From a virus: a stretch of DNA of 64,000 nt. Of the stretch, positions 1 to 64,000 are shown in pieces. Within the stretch, counting starts at the first letter, position 1; each line of letters begins with the position of its first letter. The stretch covers positions 1 to 64,000 of IMG/VR virus record IMGVR_UViG_3300036801_000174. One strand, 5' to 3'. The notes beneath the pieces are model-generated. The model worked only from the letters and a program-made list of their open reading frames with translations, was not told the origin of the DNA and ran no database searches. Made by a program: the position numbers and the translations under genes.

Positions 1-239
1 CTGGCCAGCGGGGTTACCGCGTAGGCGGGTTCCTCGGCGTACTCACCGGACCCGCCGCCGCCAGCGCAGAAGTTGGTGTAGGTGTCCGGGGATGAGTCGG
101 AGCTGCCGAAGTGGGCGACCGTCGCCAGGCCGAGGCCACCCCCGCCGCCCGCTCCCCAGCACTGCACGTCCAGCGATGTGATACCGGCCGGGACTGAGAA
201 AGTGAAGCTGCCGTGGGTGCTGAAGGCCTGCGAGGGCAC
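1..239 (-). CDS. glycine-rich tail protein, C-terminus beyond window
   Basis: The start is GTG at 239, with a purine-rich AGGGGG tract 12 nt upstream; the reading frame leaves the window at position 1. The visible residues contain FTFSVPAGITSLDVQCWG followed by a poly-glycine tract. The same module occurs twice in the 1600-aa minor tail protein at 3715-8517. This Gly-rich β-domain is common in actinophage tail appendages. It is the last visible gene of the leftward structural operon and probably a tail fibre or receptor-binding protein; the end is missing. Confidence 0.75.
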   Translation of the reverse strand, partial: MPSQAFSTHGSFTFSVPAGITSLDVQCWGAGGGGGLGLATVAHFGSSDSSPDTYTNFCAGGGGSGEYAEEPAYAVTPLA

Positions 240-296
240 CGCTAACCCGCACCCCCTGGGGTAGGCGCGTGCGGGCGTTATTGCAGGTCAGTGCGG

Positions 297-302
297 TAGA
301 AT
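297..302 (+). promoter_or_regulatory. possible -10 hexamer for the HNH gene
   Basis: TAGAAT lies 78 nt upstream of the ATG at 381, in the gap between the Gly-rich tail gene and the HNH gene. No convincing -35 box is seen, so this is only a candidate. Confidence 0.3.
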
Positions 303-380
303 CGTGCCCAGAAACGATACGGGCGCGACCGGTGTGTCAGCACCATGTGGCCGCGCCCTAACCGAGAGGAACCCTCGGCT

Positions 381-1187
381 ATGGACAAGTGTGGCACGCC
401 CGAATTGCCGTTCCCGACCGGCGAGCCCGAGCCGCCGGAGGAGTGGCGGTGGGTAGTTCGTTATGAGGGACTCTATGAAGTCAGTTCGTATGGGCGCATA
501 CGCAGGGTGCCGGGGCTTGACTGCCGAGGGCAGTACGCGCGCGGCGGCGTCCTTAGGCCCAAACTCACGAACGGTTACCCGACGGTACAACTCTACGGCC
601 GAGGGCCGAGCAGTTCGAGCGTAACGCGACTCGTCCACAAACTTGTTGCCGAAGCCTTCATCGGGCCGTGCCCTCCGGGGCAGGAGGTGTGCCACGGCCG
701 GAACGGGAAGGCAGACAATCGGGCGTCGCAGCTCCGCTACGGCACGCATCGTGAGAACGAACACGACAAGATCGTCTTCGGTACGCTGCTCACCGGGGAG
801 CGCAACCCGCTGGCGAAACTGACCGATAAAGACGTGGCAAGCATCCGGCAGCGGCGAATAGACGGCGAGAAGAACGTAACGCTTGCGCGGGAGTTCGGTG
901 TGTCGCGCGGGGTGATCACTCGCATCACGACGGGACTCAACTGGCGACGGGACGGTAATCCGTCCCTGGTGCGCCCTCCGCAGAAGCGGAGGCTGTCCGC
1001 CGCTGACATCATGGTTATCCGGACGCGATATGCCGCAGGGGGCATCCGTCAAGATGAACTGGGCGCCGAGTTCGGGATGCCGCAGACGTCCGTCAGTGGG
1101 ATAGTCCGTGGTCGGCTCTATCCGGATTGCCCCGGACCTATCACGCGCTCAGCACGCGCTCCCCGGCGTGCTGCTCAGATGGCTTGA
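381..1187 (+). CDS. NUMOD4/HNH (HNH_3-type) endonuclease with HTH repeats
   Basis: A 268-aa free-standing nuclease of homing type. Near the N-terminus YEGLYEVSSYGRIRRV matches the NUMOD4 DNA-binding motif. It is followed by an HNH_3-like core (VHKLVAEAFIG, then CHGRNGKADNR). The C-terminal half carries two HTH-like units (LAREFGVSRGVITRI and LGAEFGMPQTSVSGI). The ATG at 381 was chosen because GAGAGGA lies just upstream; an in-frame ATG at 345 lacks this. The gene runs against the tail operon and its end overlaps the converging tail-fibre gene by 13 bp. It is probably a selfish gene inserted between tail genes. Confidence 0.85.
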   Translation: MDKCGTPELPFPTGEPEPPEEWRWVVRYEGLYEVSSYGRIRRVPGLDCRGQYARGGVLRPKLTNGYPTVQLYGRGPSSSSVTRLVHKLVAEAFIGPCPPGQEVCHGRNGKADNRASQLRYGTHRENEHDKIVFGTLLTGERNPLAKLTDKDVASIRQRRIDGEKNVTLAREFGVSRGVITRITTGLNWRRDGNPSLVRPPQKRRLSAADIMVIRTRYAAGGIRQDELGAEFGMPQTSVSGIVRGRLYPDCPGPITRSARAPRRAAQMA

Positions 1188-3714: not shown

Positions 3715-6700
3715 CTACTCCATCACCAGCCCCGTCTGATCGGTGACATCGTTCCCTGCTTCGTCCTCGATTTCCTCGAGCGACGGCACGCCCCACATCG
3801 ACGGCGGGTACCAGTCCGCGACGACTTCGGCCGACGCGGTGCCCTGCGCGAAGTTGATCTTCCGTTTAACCTGGGTGACCCGCCACACGGACGTGAACGG
3901 GGGCTGGCCGGGCATCTGCTGGGTCACCTGGATCACGTCGCCCGGGTTGACCGCGAGCACGTATTCCCAGGCTTGCGGGACGGTCTGCGCCATGCCCGCC
4001 GCGTCCACCGTCAGGGACGTGATCCGCTGCCGGGGCACCCCGAACTGGCCGAAGATCCACGACGCCTGCGCCTGGATCTGGGTGGTGTCCTGCAGGTAGC
4101 TGGTGAACTGCTGCTGGTTGTCGCCGAACTGCGCCAGCGACGCCTGCACCGCCGCCGCGTACTGGGCACCGGGCCCGAACACCAGCCCGCCGTGGGTTTC
4201 CGCCGACCCGGTCGCTGACCCGGCCTGGCCCGCCGGGACGGCGAAGACGTCAAATTGGGTGACCGCGATGTCGTTGAACACTCTCTGCGGGTCCGTGTCG
4301 AAACTGACGTCGCCGGAGTAGGGGATCTGGCCGTAGGTGACGAACGGGCCAAGGTGCCAGGCGACCTGCTGGGCGGCGAGGTGCTCGCGGGAGAAGTAGC
4401 ACAGGTTCCCGCAGGTGTCGGTGTGCAGGAACCCGTCGTCGGAGGCGGTGATGTTGCCGATCGAGTCGCCGGAGGACTGGCCCCCGGTGTCGAGCTCGGC
4501 CACCACAGCGAGACTGGCGGGGTCGATGCACCTTTGCGGGCTGGTGATGCCGCCGGACAGCAGCAGCCGCTCGATCCGCTGCGCCACCGTGTCCCCGAGC
4601 GCCGACGCCGCCGCCGGGGGGCTGGCCCCGGTGCCGTAGGAGGTGACGTACAGGTAGGGCTGGACGGTGCGGGCGTGCAGCTGTTCCGCCCCGCCCGCGT
4701 TCCCGGTCCAGTAGCTGTACTCCGGCGCCAGGCCGGTGACGGCCAGCCACGCTTCGCCGCTGACCGGGTCGGTGAACAGGTTCACGCTTTCGGGCTGGCT
4801 GACCGCCGAGGTGTAGTCCCCGGCGGAGTTCGTGACGTACACCGACAGGACCGACCGGTCCCCGAGCGGGGAGCCACCCGACCCGGTGTCGTTGAAGAAC
4901 GGGATGCCGAGGTACAGCATCCCGTCGGGCAGCCAGTACGGGCCGCCGGTGCTGTTGGACAGGAACTGGCAGGTCACGGCCGGGGCGGGGAGCTGCCCGA
5001 ACGCGGCGTAGGCCGCCATGAAATGGGCCATGATCCGTGCCCCGGGCAGGACCCTCGGGTAGATCGCCAGGTGGCTGTAGGACACGTTGCCGCACCCGGC
5101 CAGCGTGCCCGCCGCCGGTGGTGCGCCCATGTTCCCGGTCCCGGCGCCGGCGAGGAACCACTGCCACTGGGCCGCCATGGCGGCGGGCCCGGAGACGGTG
5201 GCGACGACGCCGCCGTTGACGTACACCACCCAGCTGCTCTGGGTCATGGTGACCGTGACACCCATCCACGCGTTGTCCCACAGGTACTGCTGCGGGTACA
5301 GGGTGTAGATGACGGTGGAGGTGGGGGTGGTGCCAGCCCAGGTGGTGAACGTCAGCTGTGATTTCGCGTCCATCGACAACTGGGCCAGGGGGGCGTCAGC
5401 GGAGGCGATGGTCCACAGCACGATAGGCCCGGGGCTGACCAGGGGGCCGGACGTCGCGGCGGGCTGGCCGAGGTAACCTTCCGGCTCGTTCCCGCCGCTG
5501 GCCGTGGCGGGCCGGATGGGGATCCCGGCGGTGGCGAGGGCGGGTTTGAACCAGCCCTCGATGGTGACACCCCCGCTGAGCGGCGGGAACGTTGCGTCCT
5601 GGCAGGACAGGTACCGGCCGGCGGAGGAGACGCCGTTGCCGGCCTGCTGCCAGGCCGCGGAGTCCGGGTCGCCGTACATCCAGCCCTGCTCCTGCGCGAA
5701 GGCCTGGGTGGCGATGTAGGCGAAGACGCTCTGCGGGTTCCCGCCGGGTGAGAACGGCCCGTAACTCGTCAGGCCGGCCGGGGAGATGACGATCTGCAGC
5801 GGGTTGCCGGACGCGGGGGCGGCGTTGACCAGGTCCGTGGCCTGGTTGACGCCGGAGTCGTCGCATGGCCACCACCAGCCGGACCCGGTGGCGAGGTCGG
5901 CGAGCACCTCGGCCCGGTAGGAGGTGGGCAGCAGCCGGTTCGCCACGCTCCACAGGTCCGTGGCGGAGGCGTTGGAGATCCCGCGGTAGGTTTTCTCCCA
6001 GGTCTGCGGCCAGCGTTCCATGTTGCGCTGGATGACATGCCACCTGGTGCCGCCGGGGGGGACGGCACGGATCCGCACCGGGGTTCCGGGGGTGATGTGC
6101 GGGTAGTAGGGGCTGGCGGGGTTGAACGGCGAGACCGCGCCTTCGGGGTTGTCGAGGGCCAGGGTGACTTCGGACGCTTGCAGGGCGTCGAGTTCGTACT
6201 GGACCCCGGTGGTCTCGTCCCATGACCGGAGCCGGTGGGCGCGGGTCTGCAGGTCGGTCCATTCCATCTGGTCGGCGGGGGTCTGGAACCCGGCCCCGAA
6301 CGCCGCCTCGAAGATCAGGTACGGCCAGGAGGGGTTGAGGCCGTACGGCACCGGGGACGGGGCGCCGATGACGACGGCGATGATGACGCCGGACAGGTCT
6401 TCGGGTGAGGTGGAGGTGGCGGTGACCGTCTGGCCGCTGCTGGCGACCGCGCAGGCGGAGGCCAGGACGGTGTCGGAGGTGAAGTCGTGGCCGTTGGTGC
6501 AGGTCACGGTTTCCAGCTGGGTGTAGCCGGGCGGGGCGAACGTGGTCCCGGCGGACACCGAGTCCCCGGTGACGGCGGCGAGGAAGAACGTCAGCTGCGG
6601 GACCGCCGTGCCGCCCGTGTCCGTGATCGGGTGCAGGACCGGGGACGGCACCCCGGCGGAATACTCCAGGCCGGTGACCCCGGCGGGGGCGAACAGGGCC

Positions 6701-8517
6701 AGGGACTCCGCCGCCGCAGAGTAGGCGGTGACGGCCACGGTTTCGTCCCAGGTCCCGAGGCCGCCTACCTCGGTGACCAGGACACTGAACCCGGCTGCGT
6801 AGCCGCTGGGGGCGACGTAGACGGCCTGCGGGACGCCGATGAGGTTGGGGGTGAACCAGACGGTGGTCCGGCATGCCCCAGTGGGGTCTGAGGGTGCCTG
6901 GGGCCGCCAGTAGGAGTGCAGGTCGTCGCCCACGGACACGGTGACCGGCGGGGAACCGGGGGCGGCGTGCCACCCCACGACGGCGAACAGCCAGTTCCCG
7001 GCCGTCGCGGTGCCGGTCCCGCCGCCCACGCTCGAGGACGGGGCGAGCGGCACGACGGTGGAGGCGTTCGCGGGCAGGCTGGGGCCGAACACGGGGTTCT
7101 GGGTGGTGACCCCGGCCCACTGGTTGAGTACTTCCGGCGGCCCGTACTGCGACGCGGTCAGGGTGGCATTGCCGGAGAACGACGCGATGGCCCAGGTGAG
7201 CGTGACCCGCCCGGCGAACCCGTTCCCGCCCGGTGAGCTCTTCCCCCCGCCACCACCGCCACCGGGCCCGGTGAGCGGGCTCAGGCCACCAGCGGGAGCA
7301 GTGCCGCCATCCCCACCCGGGCCGCCCGTGGACACCGCCACAGCCCCGGCACCGCCGTGGGTGGTGGTAGCCGCTGTGCCGGCGGTCCCGGCCGCACCCG
7401 GGCAGCCTGACCCGCCGCCGCCGCCACCACCTCCGCCGGCCCCGGCACCGCCAGCGCCCCCGTTGTGATGCGAGGTAGCCGAGGAGCCGGTTCCGCCTGC
7501 GCCTCCGGATGTTCCGGACCCGCCGGAACCGCCGTGCGCGGTGACCGTGACCGAATCGCCAGCGAAGACCGTGGACTGCCCGCCAGCACCGGCCCCGGAT
7601 GACGTAGCGCCGAGACCGCCAGCCCCAACGGTGACCGGGTAAACCGTTCCCGGGGTTACCGCCAGCAGCGGCGTGGCAGCCCACTCACCACCGCCGCCAG
7701 CCCCGCCACCAGACGACGACCACGCCCCGCCGGCACCGCCGCCCCAGCATTCGGCCAGGACCGCGAACACCCCGGCCGGGCACGTCCATGACGGCGGCAG
7801 GACGTAGGTGACCAGGATCTGGCCAGCGGAACCGTCCCCACCAGAGGAACCCTGGCCCTTGCCGGTGCCGCAGCACCCGCCCCCGCCACCGCCCGGTGAC
7901 CCGCCACCGGTCCCGTTCGCACTGAACGCGCCGTTGTAAAGACCGCCCGCACCCCCGGCGCCGCCACCAGCTACGGCAGCCGCACCGGGACCCCCGGCGC
8001 CGGCGGGGTTGCCCCCGGTTCCGGCCCTGCCCGCCGACGCGACCCCAGCTCCCCCGCCACCACCGCCGCCGCCGGACGCGGGGGAGAACAGGCCGGTGTT
8101 CCCGGCCCCGCCCGCCCCGCCGGCCCAGGCAACCGAACTGGACCCGGCCGCTGCCCCGGCCGGCGCGGTGGCGCTTACCGCCCCGGGCCCGCCGAGGGCC
8201 GAAACGGTGACCGAGTCCCCGGTGAACGTGGTCGTGGCGCCGTTGCCGCCGGGGAACGTCCCCGCCGACGTCAGCAGGCCCCCGGCTCCCCCGGTGCCGA
8301 CGCTGAACGTGTAGGTATGGGCCGGGGTAACCGCCAGGGCCCGTTCAGCGGCGTAAGCACCCCCGCCGCCGCCCGCGCCCGCGAACGTGGTGGAGGCGCA
8401 CCCGCCACCGCCGCCGCCCCAGCACTGGACCGTGACCGACGTGACCCCGGCCGGGCACGTCCAGGTCCCGGAGGCCAGGAACGAAAGGGTCTGCGGCCCG
8501 AAGGTGACCGAGGCCAT
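3715..8517 (-). CDS. large minor tail protein (Gly-rich N-terminus, LamG-like and Tal-like regions)
   Basis: 1600 aa. Two Gly-rich modules come first, each opening with WTCPAGV and a CWGGG motif (about residues 17-235 and 241-440). A β-sandwich region follows (about 450-725). The next segment begins LIFEAAFGAGFQTPADQMEW, typical of siphophage minor tail proteins. Residues about 950-1170 contain GVTIEGWFKPAL and resemble a LamG/concanavalin fold that may bind carbohydrate. The last 300 residues resemble baseplate hub or tail-associated proteins. It sits directly downstream of the tape measure and a small structural protein. The fusion of adhesive modules to a hub is unusual in length but fits an actinophage tail tip. 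Confidence 0.8.
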   Translation of the reverse strand: MASVTFGPQTLSFLASGTWTCPAGVTSVTVQCWGGGGGGCASTTFAGAGGGGGAYAAERALAVTPAHTYTFSVGTGGAGGLLTSAGTFPGGNGATTTFTGDSVTVSALGGPGAVSATAPAGAAAGSSSVAWAGGAGGAGNTGLFSPASGGGGGGGGAGVASAGRAGTGGNPAGAGGPGAAAVAGGGAGGAGGLYNGAFSANGTGGGSPGGGGGGCCGTGKGQGSSGGDGSAGQILVTYVLPPSWTCPAGVFAVLAECWGGGAGGAWSSSGGGAGGGGEWAATPLLAVTPGTVYPVTVGAGGLGATSSGAGAGGQSTVFAGDSVTVTAHGGSGGSGTSGGAGGTGSSATSHHNGGAGGAGAGGGGGGGGGSGCPGAAGTAGTAATTTHGGAGAVAVSTGGPGGDGGTAPAGGLSPLTGPGGGGGGGKSSPGGNGFAGRVTLTWAIASFSGNATLTASQYGPPEVLNQWAGVTTQNPVFGPSLPANASTVVPLAPSSSVGGGTGTATAGNWLFAVVGWHAAPGSPPVTVSVGDDLHSYWRPQAPSDPTGACRTTVWFTPNLIGVPQAVYVAPSGYAAGFSVLVTEVGGLGTWDETVAVTAYSAAAESLALFAPAGVTGLEYSAGVPSPVLHPITDTGGTAVPQLTFFLAAVTGDSVSAGTTFAPPGYTQLETVTCTNGHDFTSDTVLASACAVASSGQTVTATSTSPEDLSGVIIAVVIGAPSPVPYGLNPSWPYLIFEAAFGAGFQTPADQMEWTDLQTRAHRLRSWDETTGVQYELDALQASEVTLALDNPEGAVSPFNPASPYYPHITPGTPVRIRAVPPGGTRWHVIQRNMERWPQTWEKTYRGISNASATDLWSVANRLLPTSYRAEVLADLATGSGWWWPCDDSGVNQATDLVNAAPASGNPLQIVISPAGLTSYGPFSPGGNPQSVFAYIATQAFAQEQGWMYGDPDSAAWQQAGNGVSSAGRYLSCQDATFPPLSGGVTIEGWFKPALATAGIPIRPATASGGNEPEGYLGQPAATSGPLVSPGPIVLWTIASADAPLAQLSMDAKSQLTFTTWAGTTPTSTVIYTLYPQQYLWDNAWMGVTVTMTQSSWVVYVNGGVVATVSGPAAMAAQWQWFLAGAGTGNMGAPPAAGTLAGCGNVSYSHLAIYPRVLPGARIMAHFMAAYAAFGQLPAPAVTCQFLSNSTGGPYWLPDGMLYLGIPFFNDTGSGGSPLGDRSVLSVYVTNSAGDYTSAVSQPESVNLFTDPVSGEAWLAVTGLAPEYSYWTGNAGGAEQLHARTVQPYLYVTSYGTGASPPAAASALGDTVAQRIERLLLSGGITSPQRCIDPASLAVVAELDTGGQSSGDSIGNITASDDGFLHTDTCGNLCYFSREHLAAQQVAWHLGPFVTYGQIPYSGDVSFDTDPQRVFNDIAVTQFDVFAVPAGQAGSATGSAETHGGLVFGPGAQYAAAVQASLAQFGDNQQQFTSYLQDTTQIQAQASWIFGQFGVPRQRITSLTVDAAGMAQTVPQAWEYVLAVNPGDVIQVTQQMPGQPPFTSVWRVTQVKRKINFAQGTASAEVVADWYPPSMWGVPSLEEIEDEAGNDVTDQTGLVME

Positions 8518-9161: not shown

Positions 9162-12100
9162 CTAACTGCTGCGCCCGGCCAGCTTCAGCCCTGAGCCGGT
9201 GTTCCGGTGCGCCCGCTGAAGCGTGTAGGTTTGCACCGCATTGGCGATTTCCTTGCCGTCCAGGTTCACGTGAACGTTGATCACCTGGCCCGGCCCGCTG
9301 GCATTGCCGCCGCCCTGCACAATGATCGGCATCGGCTGAACCCCGCCGCCAGCGCCCACATGCGGGCTCACCAGCTTCCCGCCAGCAGCCTTCTTGTGAG
9401 CCTCCGCCGCGCCCTTGCCCACCCCGTCCGCGAACTGCTTGCCGAGGTCTTTCCCCAGTTCGGCCAGGGACTTGCCGTCCTTCCCGCCCTTCAGCGCCTT
9501 CACAATCGACTTCGCCAGGTCCTTGATCGACGCCTCAACCCCGGACAGCGCCGACTTCAGGCCCGCGGCCAGGCCCTTCCCGATATCCGCACCGGACTCA
9601 TACGCCGCATTCGCGCCGGTCACACCAAGCTGCTTCGCCGCCTTCGCAAGCTGGTTCTGCAGCTGCGCGACCTCTTTCACGCCCCCCGGCCCCCCGGACA
9701 GCAGCGTCTTCGCCGCCGGCAGCCCGGTCGTCACCCCCGCCTGCAGCAGCTGCTTGATGCTGGTCTTGTCCAGGCCCTCTTTCTTCAGCTTCACGATGTC
9801 GTTCTTGAACGCGCGGACCTGGCCGATGTACTTCTTCAGCTGCGACTGGACCGACTGGTTCACCGGACCGGGGTCGGTGCCCTGTTCTTCCTCGTAAACC
9901 CGCTCACCCTCGGTTTTCACGTTCCCGGCGAGGGTGACGATGTTGCCGCCCTCGATCGCCGAGGACTGCACCGACTTGAACAGCGAGTCGGCGGCCTGGA
10001 TCTGCGACTCGAGATCCTTCCGCTGCCCCGCGAGCTGCTGGAGTTTGGCGGTGTCAGATTTCAGCCACGACGAGATCGCCGAGTCCTCGCCCCCGGTGAT
10101 CTTCTTGTCTTTCAGCGCCTTCGCCAGATCCGACTCGAGCTTGCGCATCGTGTCGGCGATGGTCTTGTCATTGAACGGCTTCAGCGTCCCGACCGCGAGA
10201 TCCTTGGCGGCCTGCTGGACGGCGGCCTTCCCGCCTTCGAGGCCCTGGGCCAGTCCTTCGGCGTCGTTCTTGCCGATGCCCTTGAACACCTTGCTTGGGC
10301 TCTGCGTGGCGTGCGCGGCTTTCACGGCCGAGGTGACTGCGTTGGCCATGGCGGTAGCTGCTGCGACAGCGGCGCCCGTGCCCGCCCGGATCCCGGCTGC
10401 GAGCCCGGCGCCCAGGGCGGACCCGGCAGCGTTCCCGGCTGCAGCCATCCCGGACAGGGCGCCGCGGATCTGGCCCACGATGGCCCGTGCCGCGCCGACT
10501 GCGGCACCGCCGCCGGACTGGATGGCGTTCGTCAGCCCGGAATCGAACGCGCGGCCCGCCGACGCCCCGGCGGCCGACATGGCACCGGACAGGGCACCGA
10601 GGCCGGACAGTTTCGCGCTGGACAAATCGACAGTGACGCCGTGGATCTTGACGTTCTTCGCCGCGGCCTGGATCCCCGACGTGTCAACCTTGTCGACCTT
10701 CGCGGTCGCGGGGACCTTGGCGTCCTTCACGCCCGAGGCGTCGGCGTGGGTGATCTTCGCTTTGGCGTTCACCGAAGGCGGCGCCAGGCCCCCGGCGGTC
10801 AGGGACTTCGCGAGCGCCGCCTTGTCGACGTGGATCTTGGCAGTGACCGGGATGTTCATCGGCCCGCCAGCGGTCAGGGAGGCCCGCAGCGCGCCCTTGT
10901 CGACCTTGGGGTGGACCGGGATGCTCAGCGGCCCGGCGCTCCCGGTCAGCGACCGCCGCAGCGCCTCACCGCCTACCGGCTTCGGGGCGACGGGAATATG
11001 CAGCGGGCCGGCGGCAGGAGACAGGGACTTCGCCAGCGCGCCCTTGTCAAGGTGCGGGGTGACCTTGACCGGCACCTGGGCGGCCTTGCCCGCGAACCCG
11101 TGCTGCGTGAATTCCTTCAGCCACGGCGGCTCCCAGGAGCCGGTGAGCGCCGGCTTCCAGAACTTGCTGATGGAGAACTCGCTGGCCTTCTCCAGGCCGC
11201 TGGCGGCCTTGCCGAAGCCCTTGAAAATGTTGTCGAGGATGTGCCCGGCGCCCTTGGTGACAGGGCTGTTCAGCACCGTGTTCAGGCCGTTGATGGCACC
11301 CGTCATGAGCTTGATGCCGTTCACGGCGGCGGTCACCAGGCCAGGGCTCACGGTCTTGATCAGCTGCGACACGCTCTTGACGAACTGGTTACCCGGCCCT
11401 GCGCCCTTGCCCACCAGCTGGCTGATGAACCCGCCGACCGCCCCGCCCAGCTGCTTGAACGAGGCCGCAGCCGGCCCCATGTCCTTCTTCAGCGAGGAGA
11501 TGAAGTGCAGGAACCCGGCGGACTTCTCCTGCTTGTCCAGGGCACCCAGCATGTTGCTGATGACCGGCGCCGCGCCCTTCGCCAGGGACACCAGCGACGG
11601 GATGGCGTCCTGGGCGGCCTTGAGCGCCTTGGGGATGTCGTGCAGGAAGTCCTTCTGGATTCCGGACTTGGCGCTGGCCTGCGAGAACGCGTGCCCGAAC
11701 TGCTGGATGGACCGCACCGAGGCCGCGATGGGCTTCGGCATCCCGGCCCACGTGTTCTGCAGGCTGGTCAGGGCCTTCTGCTCGGCCTTCAGGTTCGCCT
11801 TGGTCGGGTCACGCTCAGCGGCGACCTGGGCGGTGTGGTACTTCGCCTGGGCTGCCGTGACGGCGGTGAGGCCGTTCTTGACCTTCTCCAGCGCCGGGGC
11901 CGCGAGCAGGCCGAACGACCCGAAACCCGCGCCGAGGGACAGGACCCCCGGGGTGACGGCGACGACGGCTTCGACCAGGGCACCGATCCCTGCGGCCATG
12001 ACGGGGATGTCCAGGCTGCCGAGACCGCCCATGATCTTGCCCATGCGGCCGAGCTCGTTGTCCGCGTTCTCGGCGTCGTGGGCGAGCCGTTCGACGTCGC

Positions 12101-12584
12101 TTCCGCCACCCCGTCCGCCCCGGCCGCCGAACAGCCCTCCGGCGCCGCTGGAGATGCCGCGCTGCGCCAGGGCCGCCTCGGCGGCGTTGTCGCGGACCTT
12201 CCCCAGCGCCTCGGCGTACGCTTCCGCACCGACAGCGGACCGGCCCAGGCTCGGTGCCTTGACCGCCTTCAGCGCAGCAGCGGCCTCAGCGGCGTCGTCG
12301 CGTACCCTGGCCAGTCCCTCGGCTGCCGCTTCCGCCCCGGTGCCGATCTCGCCGAGCTTGACCCCGGAGTCCCGGATCGACTTCAGCGCCTTCGCGGCTT
12401 CCGCTGCGGCGTTGCGCAGCGACCCCAGCGACTTCGCTGCGGCACCGAACGAGCCCGCGATCTCCCCGGCAGCATCCCGGGCGTCCTTCAGGGACTTCGC
12501 GAGCTCCCGGGCCGCCGCTGCGGCGTCCTGGAGGGAGCCTGCCCCGTGGACCGAGATGTCTACGGACGCGGAGACATCAGCCAC
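9162..12584 (-). CDS. tail tape measure protein
   Basis: 1140 aa, the expected size and position (after the tail chaperone). The N-terminal 160 residues are Ala/Lys/Glu coiled coil. A hydrophobic stretch follows (about 188-240, including IGALVEAVVAVTPGVLSLGA). The middle holds five copies of a roughly 30-residue unit (KGALAKSL...GPLxIPVxPK) at about 497-610. The C-terminus is again helical and Ala/Lys-rich. It sets tail length and is ejected with the DNA; at about 1.5 Å per residue, length near 170 nm is expected. Confidence 0.92.
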   Translation of the reverse strand: MADVSASVDISVHGAGSLQDAAAAARELAKSLKDARDAAGEIAGSFGAAAKSLGSLRNAAAEAAKALKSIRDSGVKLGEIGTGAEAAAEGLARVRDDAAEAAAALKAVKAPSLGRSAVGAEAYAEALGKVRDNAAEAALAQRGISSGAGGLFGGRGGRGGGSDVERLAHDAENADNELGRMGKIMGGLGSLDIPVMAAGIGALVEAVVAVTPGVLSLGAGFGSFGLLAAPALEKVKNGLTAVTAAQAKYHTAQVAAERDPTKANLKAEQKALTSLQNTWAGMPKPIAASVRSIQQFGHAFSQASAKSGIQKDFLHDIPKALKAAQDAIPSLVSLAKGAAPVISNMLGALDKQEKSAGFLHFISSLKKDMGPAAASFKQLGGAVGGFISQLVGKGAGPGNQFVKSVSQLIKTVSPGLVTAAVNGIKLMTGAINGLNTVLNSPVTKGAGHILDNIFKGFGKAASGLEKASEFSISKFWKPALTGSWEPPWLKEFTQHGFAGKAAQVPVKVTPHLDKGALAKSLSPAAGPLHIPVAPKPVGGEALRRSLTGSAGPLSIPVHPKVDKGALRASLTAGGPMNIPVTAKIHVDKAALAKSLTAGGLAPPSVNAKAKITHADASGVKDAKVPATAKVDKVDTSGIQAAAKNVKIHGVTVDLSSAKLSGLGALSGAMSAAGASAGRAFDSGLTNAIQSGGGAAVGAARAIVGQIRGALSGMAAAGNAAGSALGAGLAAGIRAGTGAAVAAATAMANAVTSAVKAAHATQSPSKVFKGIGKNDAEGLAQGLEGGKAAVQQAAKDLAVGTLKPFNDKTIADTMRKLESDLAKALKDKKITGGEDSAISSWLKSDTAKLQQLAGQRKDLESQIQAADSLFKSVQSSAIEGGNIVTLAGNVKTEGERVYEEEQGTDPGPVNQSVQSQLKKYIGQVRAFKNDIVKLKKEGLDKTSIKQLLQAGVTTGLPAAKTLLSGGPGGVKEVAQLQNQLAKAAKQLGVTGANAAYESGADIGKGLAAGLKSALSGVEASIKDLAKSIVKALKGGKDGKSLAELGKDLGKQFADGVGKGAAEAHKKAAGGKLVSPHVGAGGGVQPMPIIVQGGGNASGPGQVINVHVNLDGKEIANAVQTYTLQRAHRNTGSGLKLAGRSS

Positions 12585-13923: not shown

Positions 13924-15189
13924 TTAATACGTAGCGACTGCGTTTTGCAAGGTGATGGTGCATATGCCCCATCCACCAGAGTTGCCAACATTGGAGGTAT
14001 TGCCCAGAAGTATCCCAGTGGTGTTGTATCCGAACAATGTCTTGTCCGCAGTCAGCTTCGCGCTGTTGAAGGCGCCGATCTGGGCCGACATCGAGAACGA
14101 GACCAGGCTCGAACCGCTCAGGCCGTTGCTGGTCGTCCAGACCAAAGTAGGACGAACATTGGACAAATAGTTGTTAAGCGCACTTTGATCAGACGCCGGA
14201 GCGTAGTCAATCGTGAAAGTCCCGTCCAAAGGACCACGAGCTATGACATAGGGGGCCTGCTGGCCATCGACTGCGGGGATCGGCTCGACCTCGCGGACGA
14301 GGTCAATCTCCCAGCTCATGATGTTGTAGATGCCGGTCCCGCCGATGGTGGACGTGCCCATCCACGCCGGGATCGAGTTCACCGAGGAGAGCGAGGGCGT
14401 GATGGTCCCGGCCGGAGCGGTCTGCGGCCAGCAGGTCACCGCGCCTTCCCACGTGAGCAGCCCGGTCGCGGCCCCGGAAATCTTCAGCGAGCTGAAGCAC
14501 GAGAAGGGATACAGGTCCCCGTAGAATCCGCCGCTGCCCGCGGTCTGGTTGCGGTCGAACAGTGCGTGAGACGGCGGCTGGCCATTGACGAGGCCTGTGG
14601 CCGAAGCCGGGTTCAGGGTATTGAAAACGTGCGTAAACGGGGCCACGACGGTCGTGACGGCGATGCCGGTCAGGTGCGAGAACCGGATCGGCGTGGTGGC
14701 GTCGACCACGATGGACGTGGCTGTCGAGCCGGTGCCGACCTTGACGATCTCGGCCGTGGTCGTAGTGCCGATCTGGATGTAGGTCCCGGCGACCGCCGAG
14801 GATGCCGAGGTGACGGCGATCGGCCCGGCCCCCGGTGACAGGGCACCGGAGGTGGTCCACGTCGGCGTCCCGGCTGTCCCGGTGGCGGTGTAGTCGCCGA
14901 ATACGTTCAGGAGCACATGCCCGATGGTGTCGCCGAACAGCGGCGACGCCGGGATGGCGACCTCGGTCCAGTACGACCCGAGCTGCAGGTCGTAGACGGA
15001 CGTCATGGCGCCCCGCAGGCCCTTGTCCTCAAGCAGCCCCAGCTTCGGGTCGGGATTGAAGCCGGCCACTGGCAACTCGACATACCCGCTCGAAGGTGGC
15101 GTACCGGTCGTCGCTTCCTTGGCGATGCCGACGAACCGCTCGGCAACCGGGTATATGGCAGTAGGCACGGCCAAAGTCATGGAACTCAC
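13924..15189 (-). CDS. major tail (tube) protein
   Basis: 421 aa. The N-terminal segment (AVPTAIYPVAERFVGIAKEA, then GTPPSSGYVELPV) and β-rich Ser/Thr body match actinophage tail tube proteins. It sits directly upstream of the chaperone gene. The GTG at 15189 and an ATG at 15180 are both possible starts. The long insertion around residues 95-170 is Thr/Ala-rich and may be an outward Ig-like decoration. Confidence 0.85.
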   Translation of the reverse strand: MSSMTLAVPTAIYPVAERFVGIAKEATTGTPPSSGYVELPVAGFNPDPKLGLLEDKGLRGAMTSVYDLQLGSYWTEVAIPASPLFGDTIGHVLLNVFGDYTATGTAGTPTWTTSGALSPGAGPIAVTSASSAVAGTYIQIGTTTTAEIVKVGTGSTATSIVVDATTPIRFSHLTGIAVTTVVAPFTHVFNTLNPASATGLVNGQPPSHALFDRNQTAGSGGFYGDLYPFSCFSSLKISGAATGLLTWEGAVTCWPQTAPAGTITPSLSSVNSIPAWMGTSTIGGTGIYNIMSWEIDLVREVEPIPAVDGQQAPYVIARGPLDGTFTIDYAPASDQSALNNYLSNVRPTLVWTTSNGLSGSSLVSFSMSAQIGAFNSAKLTADKTLFGYNTTGILLGNTSNVGNSGGWGICTITLQNAVATY

Positions 15190-24060: not shown

Positions 24061-24609
24061 ATGAGCGATGACCTGGTGACATGGCTGCGGGAGCAGATCA
24101 CGGCCGACCTGGAAGCGGCGAGGATCGTCGGCGCGGGAGGCTTTGAGCCGGAGCGATGGGATACCGACCCGCCGGGACAGGTGAACCCGGCACCCGCCCC
24201 CTACGGAGACCAGATCAACGCCGTGCTTGTGCCAGATCCCGAGGACCGGCGTGATCGCGAAAGCCTGCCCGGCTGGGTGGAGGTCGTCAGCTATAACCGG
24301 ATGCTCGGCAAACCACCTGAGGCCGACTGCCGGGACGATGACCTGCCGGTCGCGCTTGTCGACTATGGGCGGCGCGAGGTGGATCACATCTGCCGTCACG
24401 ACCCGCGCAACGTGGTCGCCCGCTGCGAGGCGGAACTGGCCATCCTGGATGAGTGCGACCTGCTGCTGAAGGTCGGCATCGCCTTCCCGGATGAGGCAGG
24501 CGTCGAGTCAGCGGAGCGGATCATGCGCCTGATCGGCGCGGCCTACCGTCACCGTGACGGCTACCTGGAGGAGTGGGCACCCGCCGCTGCCCTCCAGGGC
24601 AGCGGCTAG
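24061..24609 (+). CDS. DUF6221 family protein (long form)
   Basis: 182 aa. It shares the DUF6221 plan with the gene at 15641: LVTWLREQITADLEAARI, HICRHDPRNVVARCEAELAI and a C-terminal segment with YRHRDGYLEEW. It sits antisense between portal and protease genes and overlaps the portal stop by 4 nt. The role is unknown; two copies in one element suggest useful cargo. Confidence 0.8.
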   Translation: MSDDLVTWLREQITADLEAARIVGAGGFEPERWDTDPPGQVNPAPAPYGDQINAVLVPDPEDRRDRESLPGWVEVVSYNRMLGKPPEADCRDDDLPVALVDYGRREVDHICRHDPRNVVARCEAELAILDECDLLLKVGIAFPDEAGVESAERIMRLIGAAYRHRDGYLEEWAPAAALQGSG

Positions 24610-35832: not shown

Positions 35833-35869
35833 GGGTGATCCTTCCTCGGATTTCCGGCTCAATGCGTGG

Positions 35870-40353: not shown

Positions 40354-41007
40354 TCAGCGGCTACGGGCACGGGTGGGCTGGCGGATGGTCTCGTGAGGCA
40401 GCGGGTGCGCGGTCCTGGCAGGTGCCGGTGCGCTGCGCTCCTCCGGGGCGTGGCCGTTGGTGGCGGCCTTGCCGGGCTCGCTGCGGGTGACGTCCTTCTG
40501 GGCGCCATCGGGGCGCGGGTCGCGGCCACGGGGCATCGGGTGGTCCTCCTGGCCAGGCCGGGTCCGTGCGCTGAGACGCTGGCGCAGCGACGGACGCCCG
40601 GTGCGCTCCTTACGGGGCTTCTGGCCCTTCTCCCGGCGCTCCGCCCGCTGGTCCCGGTCCCGCTGCCTGAGGTCGGCTTTGGCCAGCGGGCGGTCAGTGA
40701 GCGGGGTGTAGCCGCGCCAGGGAGTGGCCGGGCCGGGTGCCTGGCGCTTCGGCGCCTTCGCTGGCTCAGCGCGGACGCCGAGGGTCTTGTGCATCCGCTT
40801 CGGCGTGACCTTGCGCACCGCAGCCTTAGCCACCGCCGCGCTCCGGACCCTGGCACCGCGCTGGCGGTGCAGGATCTTCTGGATCTCGCGGTGGGCCGCT
40901 ACCCGCACTGAGTGGAACGGAGAGCGCAGCGCCTTGATCGCCTTCTGCAGCTTCAGCTTGTCGCGGACGCTGAGGGGGCGGTAACTGGATCCTTTTCCTG
41001 TAGCCAC
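40354..41007 (-). CDS. basic, largely disordered protein of the transfer operon
   Basis: 217 aa, rich in Arg/Lys/Pro. The N-terminal part is helical (VRDKLKLQKAIKALRSPF; HREIQKILHRQRG), the rest low complexity. It overlaps the coupling-ATPase gene by 55 nt. DNA binding is plausible by charge; no family was recognised. Confidence 0.6.
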   Translation of the reverse strand: MATGKGSSYRPLSVRDKLKLQKAIKALRSPFHSVRVAAHREIQKILHRQRGARVRSAAVAKAAVRKVTPKRMHKTLGVRAEPAKAPKRQAPGPATPWRGYTPLTDRPLAKADLRQRDRDQRAERREKGQKPRKERTGRPSLRQRLSARTRPGQEDHPMPRGRDPRPDGAQKDVTRSEPGKAATNGHAPEERSAPAPARTAHPLPHETIRQPTRARSR

Positions 41008-44677: not shown

Positions 44678-44811
44678 GACGACTCCTCGCCGCGGACGTA
44701 GCGTCCGCCCTGGACCTGCCACCCGAAGGAGGCCAGCAGCGGATTGGGATGCGGTGTGCCGTCCTTGGCATCCTCCCGGCCCTGAAGGGGCCAGGATTCC
44801 CGGGCGCTCAT
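44674..44811 (-). CDS. possible 45-aa peptide between TnpB and WhiB
   Basis: ATG 44811 overlaps the TnpB stop (ATGA), has GGAG 6 nt upstream, and its stop overlaps the WhiB start. It reads MSARESWPLQGREDAKDG at the start. The region could instead hold the TnpB right end and guide RNA. Confidence 0.4.
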   Translation of the reverse strand: MSARESWPLQGREDAKDGTPHPNPLLASFGWQVQGGRYVRGEESS

Positions 44812-46055
44812 GCCGCGCTCCGGGCGGTTCCCGCCGCCGCGAACTGCGCGGGCTTCTGCGGGCATAGAGCCGGGTGCCCCCCGGCGTGCGCAGGGATTTC
44901 GCCGCCAGTGGCGATGAGTCCCCGGGCAAGTACATTGCGCGCGGCATTTACATCGGCGTGGTCTTCGTGGCCGCACTCCTGGCACCGGAAGACCGCTTGG
45001 CTCTCGCGGTTCAGGGCGTTGGTGTGGCCGCAGATGTGGCACTGCTGCGAGGTGAATCTAGGGTTGACGAACAGGACCGTGACATCGGACGCCGCAGCCT
45101 TTTGCTCTAGCCGAGTGGCGAGGGTGCCCCAGCAGGAAGTCAGAATGCCCCGGCTCAGGCTGGCCTTGGCCCGGGCTCCGTTGCGAAGGAATGCGCTTGG
45201 CTGGCCAGGATCAGGCTTCGGCGCGGGCCTTCGGGTCATGCCCGCGATGTTCAGCTTCTCCAGCACGATCAGGTCGTTCTCACGGACCATGCGCGTGCTG
45301 ACCTTCTCCGCCCAGTCCTTGCGCCGGTCGACAGTGCCCGCAGTGATGCGTGCCATGGCCAGCACGGTGCGCTTCCGTTTCGCTGAGCCCTTCTGCTGCC
45401 GGGCCCGCTTGCGAGCGAGGGTGCAATAGCGTGCGGCGTCCCGGTCACCGATCCTCGGGGCCCGGTAGTGCTGGCCGCCCGAGGTCACCAGTGCAGTACG
45501 AACGCTGCGGTCAATACCGATGCGGCTGCCCGAGGGCTCACGGACAACGGCAGGCTGCAACGCAGCGAATGACACGTGCCACCGCCCGGCCCGGTCCAGG
45601 GTGACCCGGTAAGACTTGGCCTCGGGGACCGAACGGGACCAGCGGAAACGTACCCAGCCAAGCTTGGGAATCTGAACTGCGCCCCAGTGCCGCGACTGGC
45701 GCTTGACGCGGTAGCCGCGCCCTAGGTCATGAACCCGGAATCCCTCATTGCGCCCGGCCTTGCGCCAGGTCGGGTGCCCATGCGTGCGACCGAAGAAGTT
45801 CTGCATCGCCTGAGCGAAATCCCTGAGCGCTTGGCCCTGGACTTCAGAACTGCCAGCGCGCAGCCAGTCGAATTCGCTACGGGCCTCGGTAAGTTGCCGC
45901 GACTGCTCTGCGTAGCCGGGTGCGTTCTTGCGCCCGGGCCGCCACCAGGACTGCTGCTCGACCGCCAGGTTCCAGACGAACCGGGCGTGGGCGCAGTGCT
46001 CGCGCAGGATCAACTCCTGGGCAGGCGTCGGGTAGAGCCGGTATCGGGTGCTCAT
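44808..46055 (-). CDS. tnpB: TnpB RNA-guided nuclease (IS200/IS605 type)
   Basis: 415 aa, full length. RuvC residues are intact: D182 in GIDRSVRTALV, E266 in IVLEKLNIAG, D368 in DHADVNAARN. The zinc finger is C339-x2-C342...C358-x2-C361. No tnpA is beside it. Both ends overlap neighbouring genes by ATGA, so there is no room for an IS left end upstream. Its guide RNA, if present, would overlap the 3' end near 44700-44900. It may be domesticated. Confidence 0.9.
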   Translation of the reverse strand: MSTRYRLYPTPAQELILREHCAHARFVWNLAVEQQSWWRPGRKNAPGYAEQSRQLTEARSEFDWLRAGSSEVQGQALRDFAQAMQNFFGRTHGHPTWRKAGRNEGFRVHDLGRGYRVKRQSRHWGAVQIPKLGWVRFRWSRSVPEAKSYRVTLDRAGRWHVSFAALQPAVVREPSGSRIGIDRSVRTALVTSGGQHYRAPRIGDRDAARYCTLARKRARQQKGSAKRKRTVLAMARITAGTVDRRKDWAEKVSTRMVRENDLIVLEKLNIAGMTRRPAPKPDPGQPSAFLRNGARAKASLSRGILTSCWGTLATRLEQKAAASDVTVLFVNPRFTSQQCHICGHTNALNRESQAVFRCQECGHEDHADVNAARNVLARGLIATGGEIPAHAGGHPALCPQKPAQFAAAGTARSAA

Positions 46056-57635: not shown

Positions 57636-57878
57636 TCAGCCATCCGGAGGGCTGGCCACGAAAGTCCCCCAGCCGGGCCTCATCACGGCAAGCCGCTCGT
57701 CGACCAGCACCTTGAGCGCCTTCCTGGCTGTCAGCGCAGCCACTCCAGTCTCCTGCACAATCCGCTCCGCTGACGGCAGCCGGGACCGCGGCGGGTAGGT
57801 GCCGTCGCGGATGCCCTCGCGCAGCTGGGCCGCGATCTGCTGGTAGGGCGGCACGTCGCTGTCCCGGTCGACCTCCAT
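57636..57878 (-). CDS. GntR-family regulator (second copy)
   Basis: 80 aa, only the winged HTH: YQQIAAQLREGIRDGTYPPR, LPSAERIVQETGVAALTARK, then RPGWGTFVA. No ligand domain, as in small plasmid GntR proteins. Leaderless ATG 57878. The neighbouring GGACC dyad is a good candidate for its operator. Confidence 0.85.
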   Translation of the reverse strand: MEVDRDSDVPPYQQIAAQLREGIRDGTYPPRSRLPSAERIVQETGVAALTARKALKVLVDERLAVMRPGWGTFVASPPDG

Positions 57879-57885
57879 GATCGCA

Positions 57886-57891
57886 ACCGTA
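57886..57891 (-). promoter_or_regulatory. leaderless -10 hexamer (TACGGT, N7, ATG)
   Basis: On the minus strand TACGGT ends 7 nt before the ATG at 57878. Confidence 0.5.
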
Positions 57892-57913
57892 CGCGGGCAC
57901 TGTGGACGGGTCT

Positions 57914-57945
57914 GGACCGTATTGCACCATGGCGGAATATGGTCC
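57914..57945. promoter_or_regulatory. inverted repeat, probable GntR operator
   Basis: GGACCGTATT (57914-57923) and AATATGGTCC (57936-57945) match in 9 of 10 positions. It lies between the GntR gene and the divergent gene at 57966. Confidence 0.5.
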
Positions 57946-57953
57946 GCTAGGGC

Positions 57954-57959
57954 TAGGAT
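57954..57959 (+). promoter_or_regulatory. leaderless -10 hexamer (TAGGAT, N6, ATG)
   Basis: TAGGAT ends 6 nt before the ATG at 57966. Confidence 0.55.
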
Positions 57960-57965
57960 TGCCGC

Positions 57966-58178
57966 ATGGCAGGCCCCGACCCCGCCAGCCCCGTGCCGGC
58001 AGCCACACTCCGCGGCGACTGGTTCACCCGGGGCTGGACAGTGAGCAGCGACGGCACGCAAGCCACAGCCCCGGACGGCACACGCGTGACCGCCAGCTCC
58101 CCGGCAGTCCTGAGAGTGTTCATCCACGCCGCGTGGTGGGACCGGCAGGTCGGGGAAGTTGTGAGTTCAAGAACTTAA
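57966..58178 (+). CDS. 70-aa protein, unknown
   Basis: Leaderless. WFTRGWTVSSDGTQATAPDG and a C-terminal helix (VLRVFIHAAWWDRQVGEVV). It is divergent from the GntR gene and probably controlled by it. Confidence 0.6.
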   Translation: MAGPDPASPVPAATLRGDWFTRGWTVSSDGTQATAPDGTRVTASSPAVLRVFIHAAWWDRQVGEVVSSRT

Positions 58179-62221: not shown

Positions 62222-62805
62222 CCGCCCCCGCAATCAAGCCACACGACAGAACCGGGAACGTGATCTTGCAGCCGAAGGAGCCCGCGGACGTGACCGAGGA
62301 GACGCCCGAGCAGTCCTGGCCCAAGCCACGCGGCGCCCACTTCTCCTTCACCGCCGCGATCCTCGTCGACCATCCGCACCTCGCAGACATTTTCCGCGCC
62401 AACCAGGTCCGGCCGCCGACACCGGACGAGGCCGCGATGTACGAGCAGCGGCTCAGCGACCCCAAGTGGGCGTGGTTGCTAGCCCTGGTTGGCGAGACTC
62501 ACCCGCTGCGGCCCACGGCTGGTCCTGAGCCCGGGCCGATCGTGATCACACGCGAGGAACTGACCCAGGTCTGGGACGAACAGCACCCGGCCGAGCCCGC
62601 TCCCGTCGCTGCCGATCCTGAGCCCGCAGGTGACCCAGCCGAGGCAGGCGAGGACGTCTCCCCGCAGCCGGAAGCCGCTGAGCCAGCACCTGACGCCACG
62701 CAGGTACTCAACCCGGGCGAGGCCATGACGGCGCTCCTGCCGCCCGTGGAGGCACCCACAGCGATGCTGCCGGTCGCGACAGACGAGGACGGGGGCGAGT
62801 CATGA
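62218..62805 (+). CDS. 195-aa acidic Pro/Ala-rich protein
   Basis: ATGA overlap. Residues 30-105 are folded (HFSFTAAILVDHPHLADIF; DPKWAWLLALVGETHPL); the rest is Pro/Glu/Ala-rich and probably disordered. No family was recognised. Confidence 0.6.
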   Translation: MTAPAIKPHDRTGNVILQPKEPADVTEETPEQSWPKPRGAHFSFTAAILVDHPHLADIFRANQVRPPTPDEAAMYEQRLSDPKWAWLLALVGETHPLRPTAGPEPGPIVITREELTQVWDEQHPAEPAPVAADPEPAGDPAEAGEDVSPQPEAAEPAPDATQVLNPGEAMTALLPPVEAPTAMLPVATDEDGGES

Positions 62806-63050
62806 GCACCGCCAGCAGTCAGCAGATGCTCAACATCCTTGCCGATGTCTCAATCGGTCTCGCCATTACGTCGGTGTGCCTGTTCCTGGTCGTCGCGCTC
62901 TGCGCGCTGGCCAAGGGCTACCGCCTGACGGTGTCGCCGCCAGCGCAGCCGAAGCAGGCGCAGCCCAAGCCCACCGTCCCGCCCGGCATGACGACGCCGG
63001 CCCAGCTGGACCGTGACCACGTGGTGAAGCCGGGCGGGGTGAAGTTCTGA
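62802..63050 (+). CDS. 82-aa single-pass membrane protein
   Basis: ATGA overlap. IGLAITSVCLFLVVALCALA is the membrane helix; a Pro/Lys/Gln tail follows. Function unknown. Confidence 0.6.
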   Translation: MSTASSQQMLNILADVSIGLAITSVCLFLVVALCALAKGYRLTVSPPAQPKQAQPKPTVPPGMTTPAQLDRDHVVKPGGVKF

Positions 63051-63433
63051 TGACGCTCGCAACCCTGCCGAACACCCGCCCCGTCTTCGTCCAGCGCCTG
63101 GACCCAGACCGCAGGGCCATTCTCCTGGCCTGGCTCGCAGCCGAAACCCTCGAGTACCCCGAGCGGCTTCCGCAGGCCGCCCAGCGCGTCCTGCTGGCCG
63201 CGTGGGCCGCCGAGACGCTCCAGGGCGTGGTGCTGCAGGAGGCATGGCTGGAGTACCTGTCAGCGGTCCGGCTGGAAGAGGACGTGGACTCCGGGCTCGT
63301 TTCGTGGCAGCAGGTCGAGCCTGAGCTGATCTGCCCGGAACCGGCCGAGGTCGTGCGCGAGATGGCGCATGCCGATGCAGCAGCAGCGCTGAGGATTCTC
63401 GTCCTCGGCGACACCAACGGGGGGACTGACTGA
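63050..63433 (+). CDS. 127-aa helical protein, unknown
   Basis: 1-nt overlap with the gene before. Ala/Leu-rich helices (RAILLAWLAAETLEYPE; AAWAAETLQGVVLQEAWLEY). It precedes the recombination-type gene and may work with it. No family was recognised. Confidence 0.55.
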   Translation: MTLATLPNTRPVFVQRLDPDRRAILLAWLAAETLEYPERLPQAAQRVLLAAWAAETLQGVVLQEAWLEYLSAVRLEEDVDSGLVSWQQVEPELICPEPAEVVREMAHADAAAALRILVLGDTNGGTD

Positions 63434-63434
63434 C

Positions 63435-64000
63435 ATGGAAGAGGCAGAGATCGTGACGGGGGAACTGGTGCCGGTGTCTCCAGCGGCCACGCTGGAGGAG
63501 TATCGGCCGCGGATCGTGATGGCGCCCGAAGAGGCCAAGGCGCTCGACGGCCAGCTGCGCAGCAACATGCGCGCGGTCCTGCACGAGGGCAGCGACTACG
63601 GCCAGATTCCCGGTGCCGGGGACAAGCCGGTCCTGCTGAAGCCGGGGGCGGAGAAGCTGCTCCAGTGGTTCGGGTTCGGACACGCCATGGAGCGCGCCGA
63701 GATCGACACCGACGCGGACGGCGGGCGGCTGGGGGTCACCTACCGCTGCACCGTCACCAAGGGCCTGCCCGATGGCCGCGTGGTCACCGTGGCCATGTGC
63801 GAGGGCTACGCGGGCTACGACGAGGACCGGTTCTTCACCAGCAAGGAGCGCTCCGAGGAGAAGGAACGCGCCAACGCCGAGCGCTACCGGCGCGCGGTCA
63901 ACCCGTCGAAGTGCATGGAGTACCGGGCCCCGTGGAACACGGTCATCAAGATGGCGCAGAAGCGCGCCATGGTCGGTGCCGCGCTCCAGGCCACCAGCGC
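63435..64000 (+). CDS. recombination-type early protein, C-terminus beyond window
   Basis: ATG 63435; at least 188 aa, cut by the window end. DYGQIPGAGDKPVLLKPGAE, LLQWFGFGH, and PWNTVIKMAQKRAMVGAAL match a family of phage/AICE early proteins with an N-T-V-x-K-M-A-x-K-R-A motif, often near RecT/Erf and single-strand DNA-binding genes. A role in DNA recombination or replication is inferred from this company. The missing part may settle it. Confidence 0.6.
   Translation, partial: MEEAEIVTGELVPVSPAATLEEYRPRIVMAPEEAKALDGQLRSNMRAVLHEGSDYGQIPGAGDKPVLLKPGAEKLLQWFGFGHAMERAEIDTDADGGRLGVTYRCTVTKGLPDGRVVTVAMCEGYAGYDEDRFFTSKERSEEKERANAERYRRAVNPSKCMEYRAPWNTVIKMAQKRAMVGAALQATS

What the first reader, a model, noticed from the sequence alone, without database searches (positions are those of the whole stretch)
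1..64000. Tailed-phage virion genes and AICE/plasmid transfer genes on one element
A full siphophage structural set (terminase to tail fibres) is joined, without visible integrase or att site, to an AICE-like set: FtsK/TraB-type motor, VirD4/TraG-like ATPase, DUF2637, KorSA-like GntR, Pif-position Nudix, Rep-like gene with iterons. A phage that also carries conjugation genes would have two ways to spread. Seen: gene content and order. Inferred: one unit.
Basis: partly seen in the sequence, partly recalled or inferred. Interest (0 to 1): 0.85.

Follow-up and report, generated by a model that had tools for sequence, protein, structure and literature searches.

The report
Actinobacterial phage carrying DNA-transfer motor genes
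This is a piece of a temperate phage of soil actinobacteria that carries, beside its particle genes, two membrane-anchored DNA pumps of the plasmid-transfer type, kept at the same place in several independent phage genomes, so it may spread both as a virus and by cell-to-cell DNA transfer, as the known Streptomyces plasmid-phage pZL12 does.

Summary
Confirmed: one contig (a 73.4 kb IMG/VR virus record) carries a tailed-phage structural set (1-34 kb) and, on the same strand just upstream of the terminase, a DUF2637 protein, an FtsK/TcpA-type motor and a VirD4/TrwB-type coupling protein (34.7-42.8 kb). No integrase is present, but in two complete relatives the integrase lies in the segment that this truncated record lacks.

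It is one unit, not a nested AICE or a misassembly. Motor genes and a terminase share a contig in at least six more virus records, two of which close as circles of about 99 and 101 kb. Phage VirD4 proteins form one clade (100/100) apart from plasmid and host ones. VirD4 is not universal: 30 of 33 virus records examined lack it.

It is not an AICE by definition: no integrase here, no AICE Rep found, no PF01580 match. No MobF or MobA/VirD2-type relaxase is detected, so transfer, if it happens, is probably FtsK/TraB-like double-stranded DNA transfer.

Precedent: pZL12, a Streptomyces plasmid-phage with an FtsK motor in the same position, for which conjugal transfer is reported. Verdict: new variant of a known kind. 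The genome structure is well supported; the transfer function is inferred.

The parts
3715..8517 (-). large tail fibre/tip protein with glycine-rich domain
   Evidence: PF21722 5.9e-25; 37-38% to the same gene in complete relative G003
9162..12584 (-). tape measure protein
   Evidence: phrog_305 8.5e-27
13924..15189 (-). probable tail tube protein
   Evidence: 45% to G003 5573-6844; related G003/G007 genes match the gene annotated as phage tail tube protein of pAmyja1
19673..21169 (-). probable major capsid protein
   Evidence: phrog_13692 7.3e-43, a family of unknown function; name inferred from position
24606..27731 (-). portal protein fused to a C-terminal head-morphogenesis-like domain
   Evidence: phrog_2662 2.8e-62; weak C-terminal hits to minor head protein
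28132..29514 (-). terminase large subunit
   Evidence: phrog_2 3.9e-28; 76% to G003, 69% to G007, 56% to plasmid pAmyja1
33475..34443 (-). conserved gene upstream of the terminase, DNA-binding-like
   Evidence: phrog_1568 2.2e-11; found upstream of TerL in about 40 loci
34681..35931 (-). DUF2637 membrane protein (accompanies transfer motors on Streptomyces plasmids)
   Evidence: PF10935 2.1e-11; next to VirD4 or FtsK genes on plasmids
36529..37464 (-). HNH/NUMOD-type endonuclease gene inside the cassette
   Evidence: phrog_1492 8.4e-9; 63% to the gene at the same place in G037
37461..38291 (-). GIY-YIG-like (T5orf172/MUG113) nuclease
   Evidence: PF13455 0.0011, PF10544 0.0014, both below cut-off
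38288..40162 (-). FtsK/TcpA-type membrane-anchored motor of the pRL2-11 family
   Evidence: Model matches TcpA 6o1x 3.2e-11 and FtsK 6t8o 1.6e-10; Walker A conserved in 7 phages; plasmid hits to pRL2-11
40354..41007 (-). small basic protein after VirD4
   Evidence: 62% over 45 residues to the gene at the same place in G037
40953..42782 (-). VirD4/TraG/TrwB-type coupling protein
   Evidence: PF12696 1.9e-19; model matches Cag-beta 1.3e-19 and TrwB 2.1e-16; one phage clade
43048..43638 (-). conserved small basic protein before VirD4
   Evidence: homologues before VirD4 in G001, G003 and G037
44808..46055 (-). TnpB-like nuclease (cargo)
   Evidence: PF07282 9.5e-22, PF01385
47434..49028 (+). XRE regulator followed by Nudix hydrolase
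   Evidence: HTH_31 0.001, DUF5919 1.6e-5; NUDIX 9.9e-14; an xre-nud pair occurs in several AICEs (PMC3218068)
50487..50591 (.). iteron-like array, about 4.5 units spaced 23/23/23/19 bp
57636..58127 (-). GntR regulator
   Evidence: PF00392 2.1e-14; 43% over 70 residues to pZL12 gp080

Best explanation
The window is most of one genome of a temperate, roughly 90-100 kb siphophage of actinobacteria. SHOWN: the FtsK, VirD4 and DUF2637 genes form a cassette placed directly upstream of the packaging genes, on the same strand, and inherited as part of the phage in a sub-lineage. INFERRED: in the lysogen (integrated, or as a circular plasmid-phage) the FtsK/TcpA-type motor, anchored in the membrane and helped by the DUF2637 protein and the VirD4 coupling protein, pumps the element's own DNA across cell-cell or hyphal contacts as double-stranded DNA, in the way of Streptomyces TraB. 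The element would then have two routes of spread, virions and mycelial DNA transfer. The missing integrase is most likely on the unsequenced part of the genome.
For: Same order in independent contigs: own, G001 (44 kb), G003 (99 kb), G037 (34 kb), G039 (20 kb) carry motor genes upstream of TerL; G042 (46 kb) carries FtsK and a TerL; G038 (101 kb) carries VirD4, FtsK, a different TerL and tail genes. G003 closes on itself: its capsid gene runs across the contig ends with a repeated stretch; G038 and G007 have 127-bp exact end repeats. Tyrosine integrases in G003 and G007. Phage VirD4s form one clade, 100/100 support, against 11 plasmid and 8 host rows. Motor folds are canonical. Purifying selection: FtsK dN/dS 0.067/0.281, VirD4 0.187/0.345. 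VirD4 and FtsK relatives otherwise sit on actinobacterial plasmids, with DUF2637 beside them. [quoted passage not shown]
Against: No MobF or MobA/VirD2-type relaxase in this or eight related records, so classical VirD4-dependent single-strand transfer is unlikely to be self-sufficient. The FtsK protein falls below the Pfam FtsK_SpoIIIE profile. VirD4 is absent from 30 of 33 related virus records. No partition genes were recognised among the proteins scanned. No clt/oriT site was identified. No experiment.
Confidence: 0.55

Rival explanations
1. The motors act inside the host mycelium only: they move prophage or plasmid copies through septa, securing inheritance and spread within a colony (a segregation or Spd-like role), with no transfer between strains.
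For: The motor fold is that of septal DNA translocases; the hosts of the family are mycelial actinobacteria; no MobF or MobA-type relaxase.
Against: Closest sequence relatives lie on plasmids beside DUF2637, several with a MobF relaxase nearby; the VirD4 fold is specific to DNA or protein export through the envelope.
Confidence: 0.2
2. VirD4 lets the phage genome ride on another element's conjugation machinery or relaxase (mobilisation in trans).
For: A coupling protein without a recognised relaxase; P1-like phage-plasmids rarely carry a relaxase or oriT, and plasmids derived from them often do (PMC10879196).
Against: Mobilisable elements usually bring an oriT or relaxase and borrow the coupling protein, the reverse of this case; VirD4 is regularly accompanied by its own FtsK motor.
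Confidence: 0.1
3. The motors serve the phage itself, for example superinfection exclusion at the membrane, DNA entry, or late intracellular DNA handling.
For: Same strand as, and immediately upstream of, the late packaging genes, with translational coupling inside the block.
Against: The sequence family lies on plasmids and was not found in phages: no VirD4 match in 50,697 phage records and one FtsK match; most terminase relatives lack VirD4.
Confidence: 0.1
4. An AICE or plasmid nested in the phage, or a chimeric assembly.
For: Most relatives have only the phage part.
Against: Same position and order in several independent metagenome contigs including closed circles, an old single phage clade of VirD4, no composition break, and no flanking att-like direct repeats seen in 29-56 kb.
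Confidence: 0.03

Closest known systems
Streptomyces plasmid-phage pZL12 (phage ZL12, NC_013420)
   Same: About 90-kb circular plasmid-phage with a full virion operon, an integrase/recombinase, a GntR regulator, and an FtsK-like gene (gp071) with a membrane protein (gp073) directly upstream of TerS/TerL/portal on the same strand; conjugal transfer reported (PMC3583192). The complete relative G007 has a gp071-type motor in that slot (24% over 282 residues, 2e-13).
   Different: gp071 is not detectably the window's FtsK, no VirD4 homologue was found among the pZL12 proteins tested, and pZL12 has ParA/ParB.
Streptomyces plasmid transfer operons (pRL2; S. tendae and GD-15H plasmids)
   Same: DUF2637 next to a pRL2-11-type FtsK, or DUF2637 followed by a VirD4-type coupling protein.
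   Different: No virion genes annotated in the stretches read; the two circular VirD4 plasmids carry a MobF relaxase; phage VirD4s are a separate clade.
AICEs (pSAM2, pMEA300 and others)
   Same: Single FtsK-type motor, GntR regulator, xre-nudix pair (PMC3218068).
   Different: No integrase in the record, no AICE Rep found, no PF01580 hit; AICEs have no virion genes.
pAmyja1 of Amycolatopsis japonica (NZ_CP008954, 92.5 kb circular)
   Same: Same virion family: TerL 56% to the window, portal 55-59% and capsid 54-56% to G003/G007; a cultured host in which the element is a circular replicon; ParB and integrase.
   Different: No VirD4, FtsK or DUF2637.

Membership tests
Tailed temperate phage (Caudoviricetes) | large terminase, portal and tail tape measure proteins on one genome | tested here: met
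Tailed temperate phage (Caudoviricetes) | integrase | tested here: not met
   none in the 73.4-kb record; present in complete relatives G003 and G007 in the stretch that this record lacks
AICE | tyrosine or serine integrase | tested here: not met
   (truncated record)
AICE | RepSA, RepAM (DUF3631) or Prim-Pol replication protein | tested here: inconclusive
   not seen among the proteins scanned with Pfam; the scan was not exhaustive. The only Rep candidate has sub-threshold HTH_36
AICE | FtsK/SpoIIIE-domain motor (PF01580) | tested here: not met
   no Pfam match, although the modelled fold matches FtsK and TcpA
T4SS-type conjugative element | VirD4-type coupling protein | tested here: met
T4SS-type conjugative element | relaxase | tested here: not met
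   no PF08751 or PF03432 in this record or eight relatives; other relaxase families not searched genome-wide
T4SS-type conjugative element | VirB4 ATPase and mating-pair genes | tested here: inconclusive
   none among the proteins scanned; no genome-wide search
pZL12-like plasmid-phage | virion operon with a transfer motor directly upstream of the terminase genes, same strand | tested here: met
pZL12-like plasmid-phage | ParA/ParB partition genes | tested here: inconclusive
   not found among the proteins scanned; about a quarter of the genome is probably missing
pZL12-like plasmid-phage | autonomous plasmid replication, inducible virions and conjugal transfer | not testable with these tools

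The most novel reading that the evidence does not exclude
A long-lived phage lineage that has made conjugation a standard second infection route: a phage-specific clade of VirD4 coupling proteins works together with an FtsK-type motor, without a recognised relaxase, to send the phage genome as double-stranded DNA from hypha to hypha.
Probability: 0.3. Interest if true: 0.8.

Novelty: new variant of a known kind. Interest (0 to 1): 0.55.

Why it matters
Phages and conjugative elements are usually treated as separate vehicles. Known phage-plasmids seldom carry conjugation genes (only two P1-like ones had a relaxase or oriT in PMC10879196), and pZL12 is the main experimental exception known to me. 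A lineage in which a transfer cassette has been kept at one genomic position through large sequence change and terminase replacement would show that dual transmission can be a stable phage strategy in mycelial actinobacteria. It gives concrete genes to delete. It also shows that sorting elements by terminase or by coupling protein alone will misclassify such genomes.

Tried and rejected
1) C-terminal 'GRSR' ends shared by many cassette proteins looked like an export signal for VirD4; the DNA shows they are the translated ribosome-binding site plus the overlapping start codon of the next gene (GGGAGGTCACGATGA), i.e. translational coupling. 2) Nested AICE or chimeric contig: rejected on independent contigs, closed relatives, tree and composition. 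3) Loss of integrase as biology: replaced by truncation. 4) DNA-level matches in phage and plasmid collections: none. 5) Sequence search for solved structures: none for either motor; structure models were needed. 6) pZL12 genes 18c-20c (annotated Tra3-like) as homologues of the cassette: no HMM match; profile alignment of 20c with either motor gave nothing. 7) Host genomes: the best VirD4 hits in 18 genomes with terminase relatives fall outside the phage clade. Order-wide FtsK hits were mostly on short contigs without recognisable phage genes, except a degraded prophage in G251 with FtsK, tape measure and integrase 85 bp from a tRNA-Arg.
Full report
WHAT WAS CHECKED. The window is bases 1-64000 of a 73,382-bp IMG/VR virus record classed as linear. 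A tailed-phage structural set lies on the minus strand between about 1 and 30 kb: TerL 28132-29514, portal 24606-27731, tape measure 9162-12584 and a glycine-rich fibre 3715-8517. The capsid gene is inferred by position at 19673-21169, since its family has no name. Reading on upstream on the same strand come a DNA-binding-like gene conserved in the family (33475-34443), DUF2637 (34681-35931), HNH and GIY-YIG-like nucleases, an FtsK-like motor (38288-40162) and a VirD4/TraG coupling protein (40953-42782). Farther right are a TnpB-like gene, an XRE-Nudix pair, an iteron-like array and a GntR gene. At the right end of the record are genes whose homologues in relatives lie together, including a DnaB-like helicase.

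ARE THE MOTORS REAL? The VirD4 protein passes three curated Pfam cut-offs and its model (mean pLDDT 76) matches Cag-beta and TrwB, E 1e-19 and 2e-16. The FtsK-like protein misses Pfam, but its model (mean pLDDT 63, motor core mostly 70-90) has the conjugative motor TcpA of pCW3 and FtsK as best PDB matches, E 3e-11 and 2e-10. G267, G269 and K270 of the FtsK Walker A are invariant in seven phage sequences. In VirD4 the Walker A lysine (K152) is invariant in eight sequences, although G002 and G003 lack the usual glycine before it. Between the related phages G001 and G039, dN and dS are 0.067 and 0.281 for FtsK and 0.187 and 0.345 for VirD4, against 0.167 and 0.613 for TerL, so both motor genes are under purifying selection.

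IS IT ONE UNIT? Yes. G003 (99,220 bp), from another metagenome, has 43048-homologue, VirD4, FtsK, a DUF2637-like protein, 33475-homologue, 33084-homologue, TerS-like gene, TerL, portal and tail genes in the same order, plus a DnaB-like helicase and a tyrosine integrase. Its capsid gene runs across the contig ends with a repeated stretch, so the genome is effectively closed. G038 (101,305 bp, 127-bp end repeat) has VirD4, FtsK, an integrase-like gene, a DnaB 65% identical to the window's, a tape measure gene, and a TerL of a different family (phrog_9). G001, G037 and G039 repeat the order with a second kind of TerL, and G042 has FtsK with a TerL. The cassette thus stays while virion genes are exchanged.

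WHY NO INTEGRASE? In G003 the integrase (33.6 kb) lies between the tail end (17 kb) and the DnaB gene (46 kb); in G007 it lies between the tail genes and the replication-side genes as well. The window's record runs from the tail genes at its left end to the DnaB gene at its right end, so exactly this segment is missing. The integrase position is not fixed in all relatives (G038 and G042 have it nearer the motors), so this is likely, not proven.

HOW WIDESPREAD? The terminase family includes members within long Streptomyces, Kitasatospora and Catenulispora contigs and the 92.5-kb circular plasmid pAmyja1 of Amycolatopsis japonica. Of 33 related virus records searched, only G001, G002 and G003 have VirD4, while 12 have DUF2637; G001 and G002 had themselves been found through VirD4, so among those found through the terminase only G003 has it. 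Phage VirD4 sequences form one clade with 100/100 support against plasmid and host sequences. This fits one acquisition followed by long residence in phages.

HOW IT MAY WORK. In Streptomyces, a single FtsK-like Tra protein moves double-stranded plasmid DNA between hyphae after binding a clt site (PMC3583192; PMC3218068). The window's FtsK belongs with pRL2-11 and related plasmid proteins, encoded next to DUF2637. The coupling protein has plasmid relatives next to DUF2637, in two circular plasmids with a MobF relaxase nearby. The phages have no MobF or MobA/VirD2-type relaxase, which argues against self-sufficient single-strand transfer and for the FtsK route. What VirD4 adds is the main unknown. 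Everything in this paragraph about the phage's function is inference.

COMPARED WITH THE KNOWN. pZL12 is the closest system: a Streptomyces plasmid-phage with an FtsK-like gene, a membrane protein and a GntR regulator beside TerS and TerL. Its transfer is reported to need a main tra gene and two neighbours (PMC3583192); the original paper was not held, so that these genes are gp071-gp073 is inferred. The complete relative G007 carries a gp071-type motor in the same slot. The window is therefore a new variant of a known kind: a different motor family plus a true VirD4. It is not an AICE by that family's published definition.

LIMITS. All phage relatives with VirD4 are metagenome contigs. Partition, Rep and VirB4 genes were not searched exhaustively. 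The FtsK model is of moderate confidence. The dN/dS values use a simple method that strong GC bias affects.

Noticed in passing
window 44306-46055: TnpB-like nuclease gene next to a WhiB regulator gene (44306-44947), with HNH and GIY-YIG-like nuclease genes nearby; no TnpA was noticed beside it.
   Followed up: partly
L017 10814-12235 (G003 30814-32235): IscB-like protein (RRXRR domain plus HNH, 7e-56) in the relative's genome, between the tail genes and the integrase.
   Followed up: no
window 36529-43856; L002; L161: Many cassette genes end in GRSR because a strong ribosome-binding site and an overlapping start codon lie at the gene end (GGGAGGTCACGATGA); marks a tightly translation-coupled operon.
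   Followed up: yes
NZ_CP008954 (pAmyja1), whole: Plasmid of a cultured Amycolatopsis that is in effect a phage-plasmid of this virion family, with ParB and an integrase; carries cytochrome P450 and radical SAM genes as cargo.
   Followed up: partly
L195 8559-10036 (G251 contig C97): Degraded prophage with FtsK, tape measure and integrase genes ending 85 bp from a tRNA-Arg (ACG): a probable attachment site for this phage group.
   Followed up: partly
L147, L149 (G040, G041; 149 and 146 kb contigs): Two larger virus records carry a VirD4 of the same phage clade but no matching FtsK was seen in the 20 kb read around it.
   Followed up: no
L160/L161 (G037 16648-18306): The terminase profile match in G037 reads through two in-frame TGA codons; an open 558-residue frame covers most of it, so the extent or start of this gene needs checking.
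   Followed up: no
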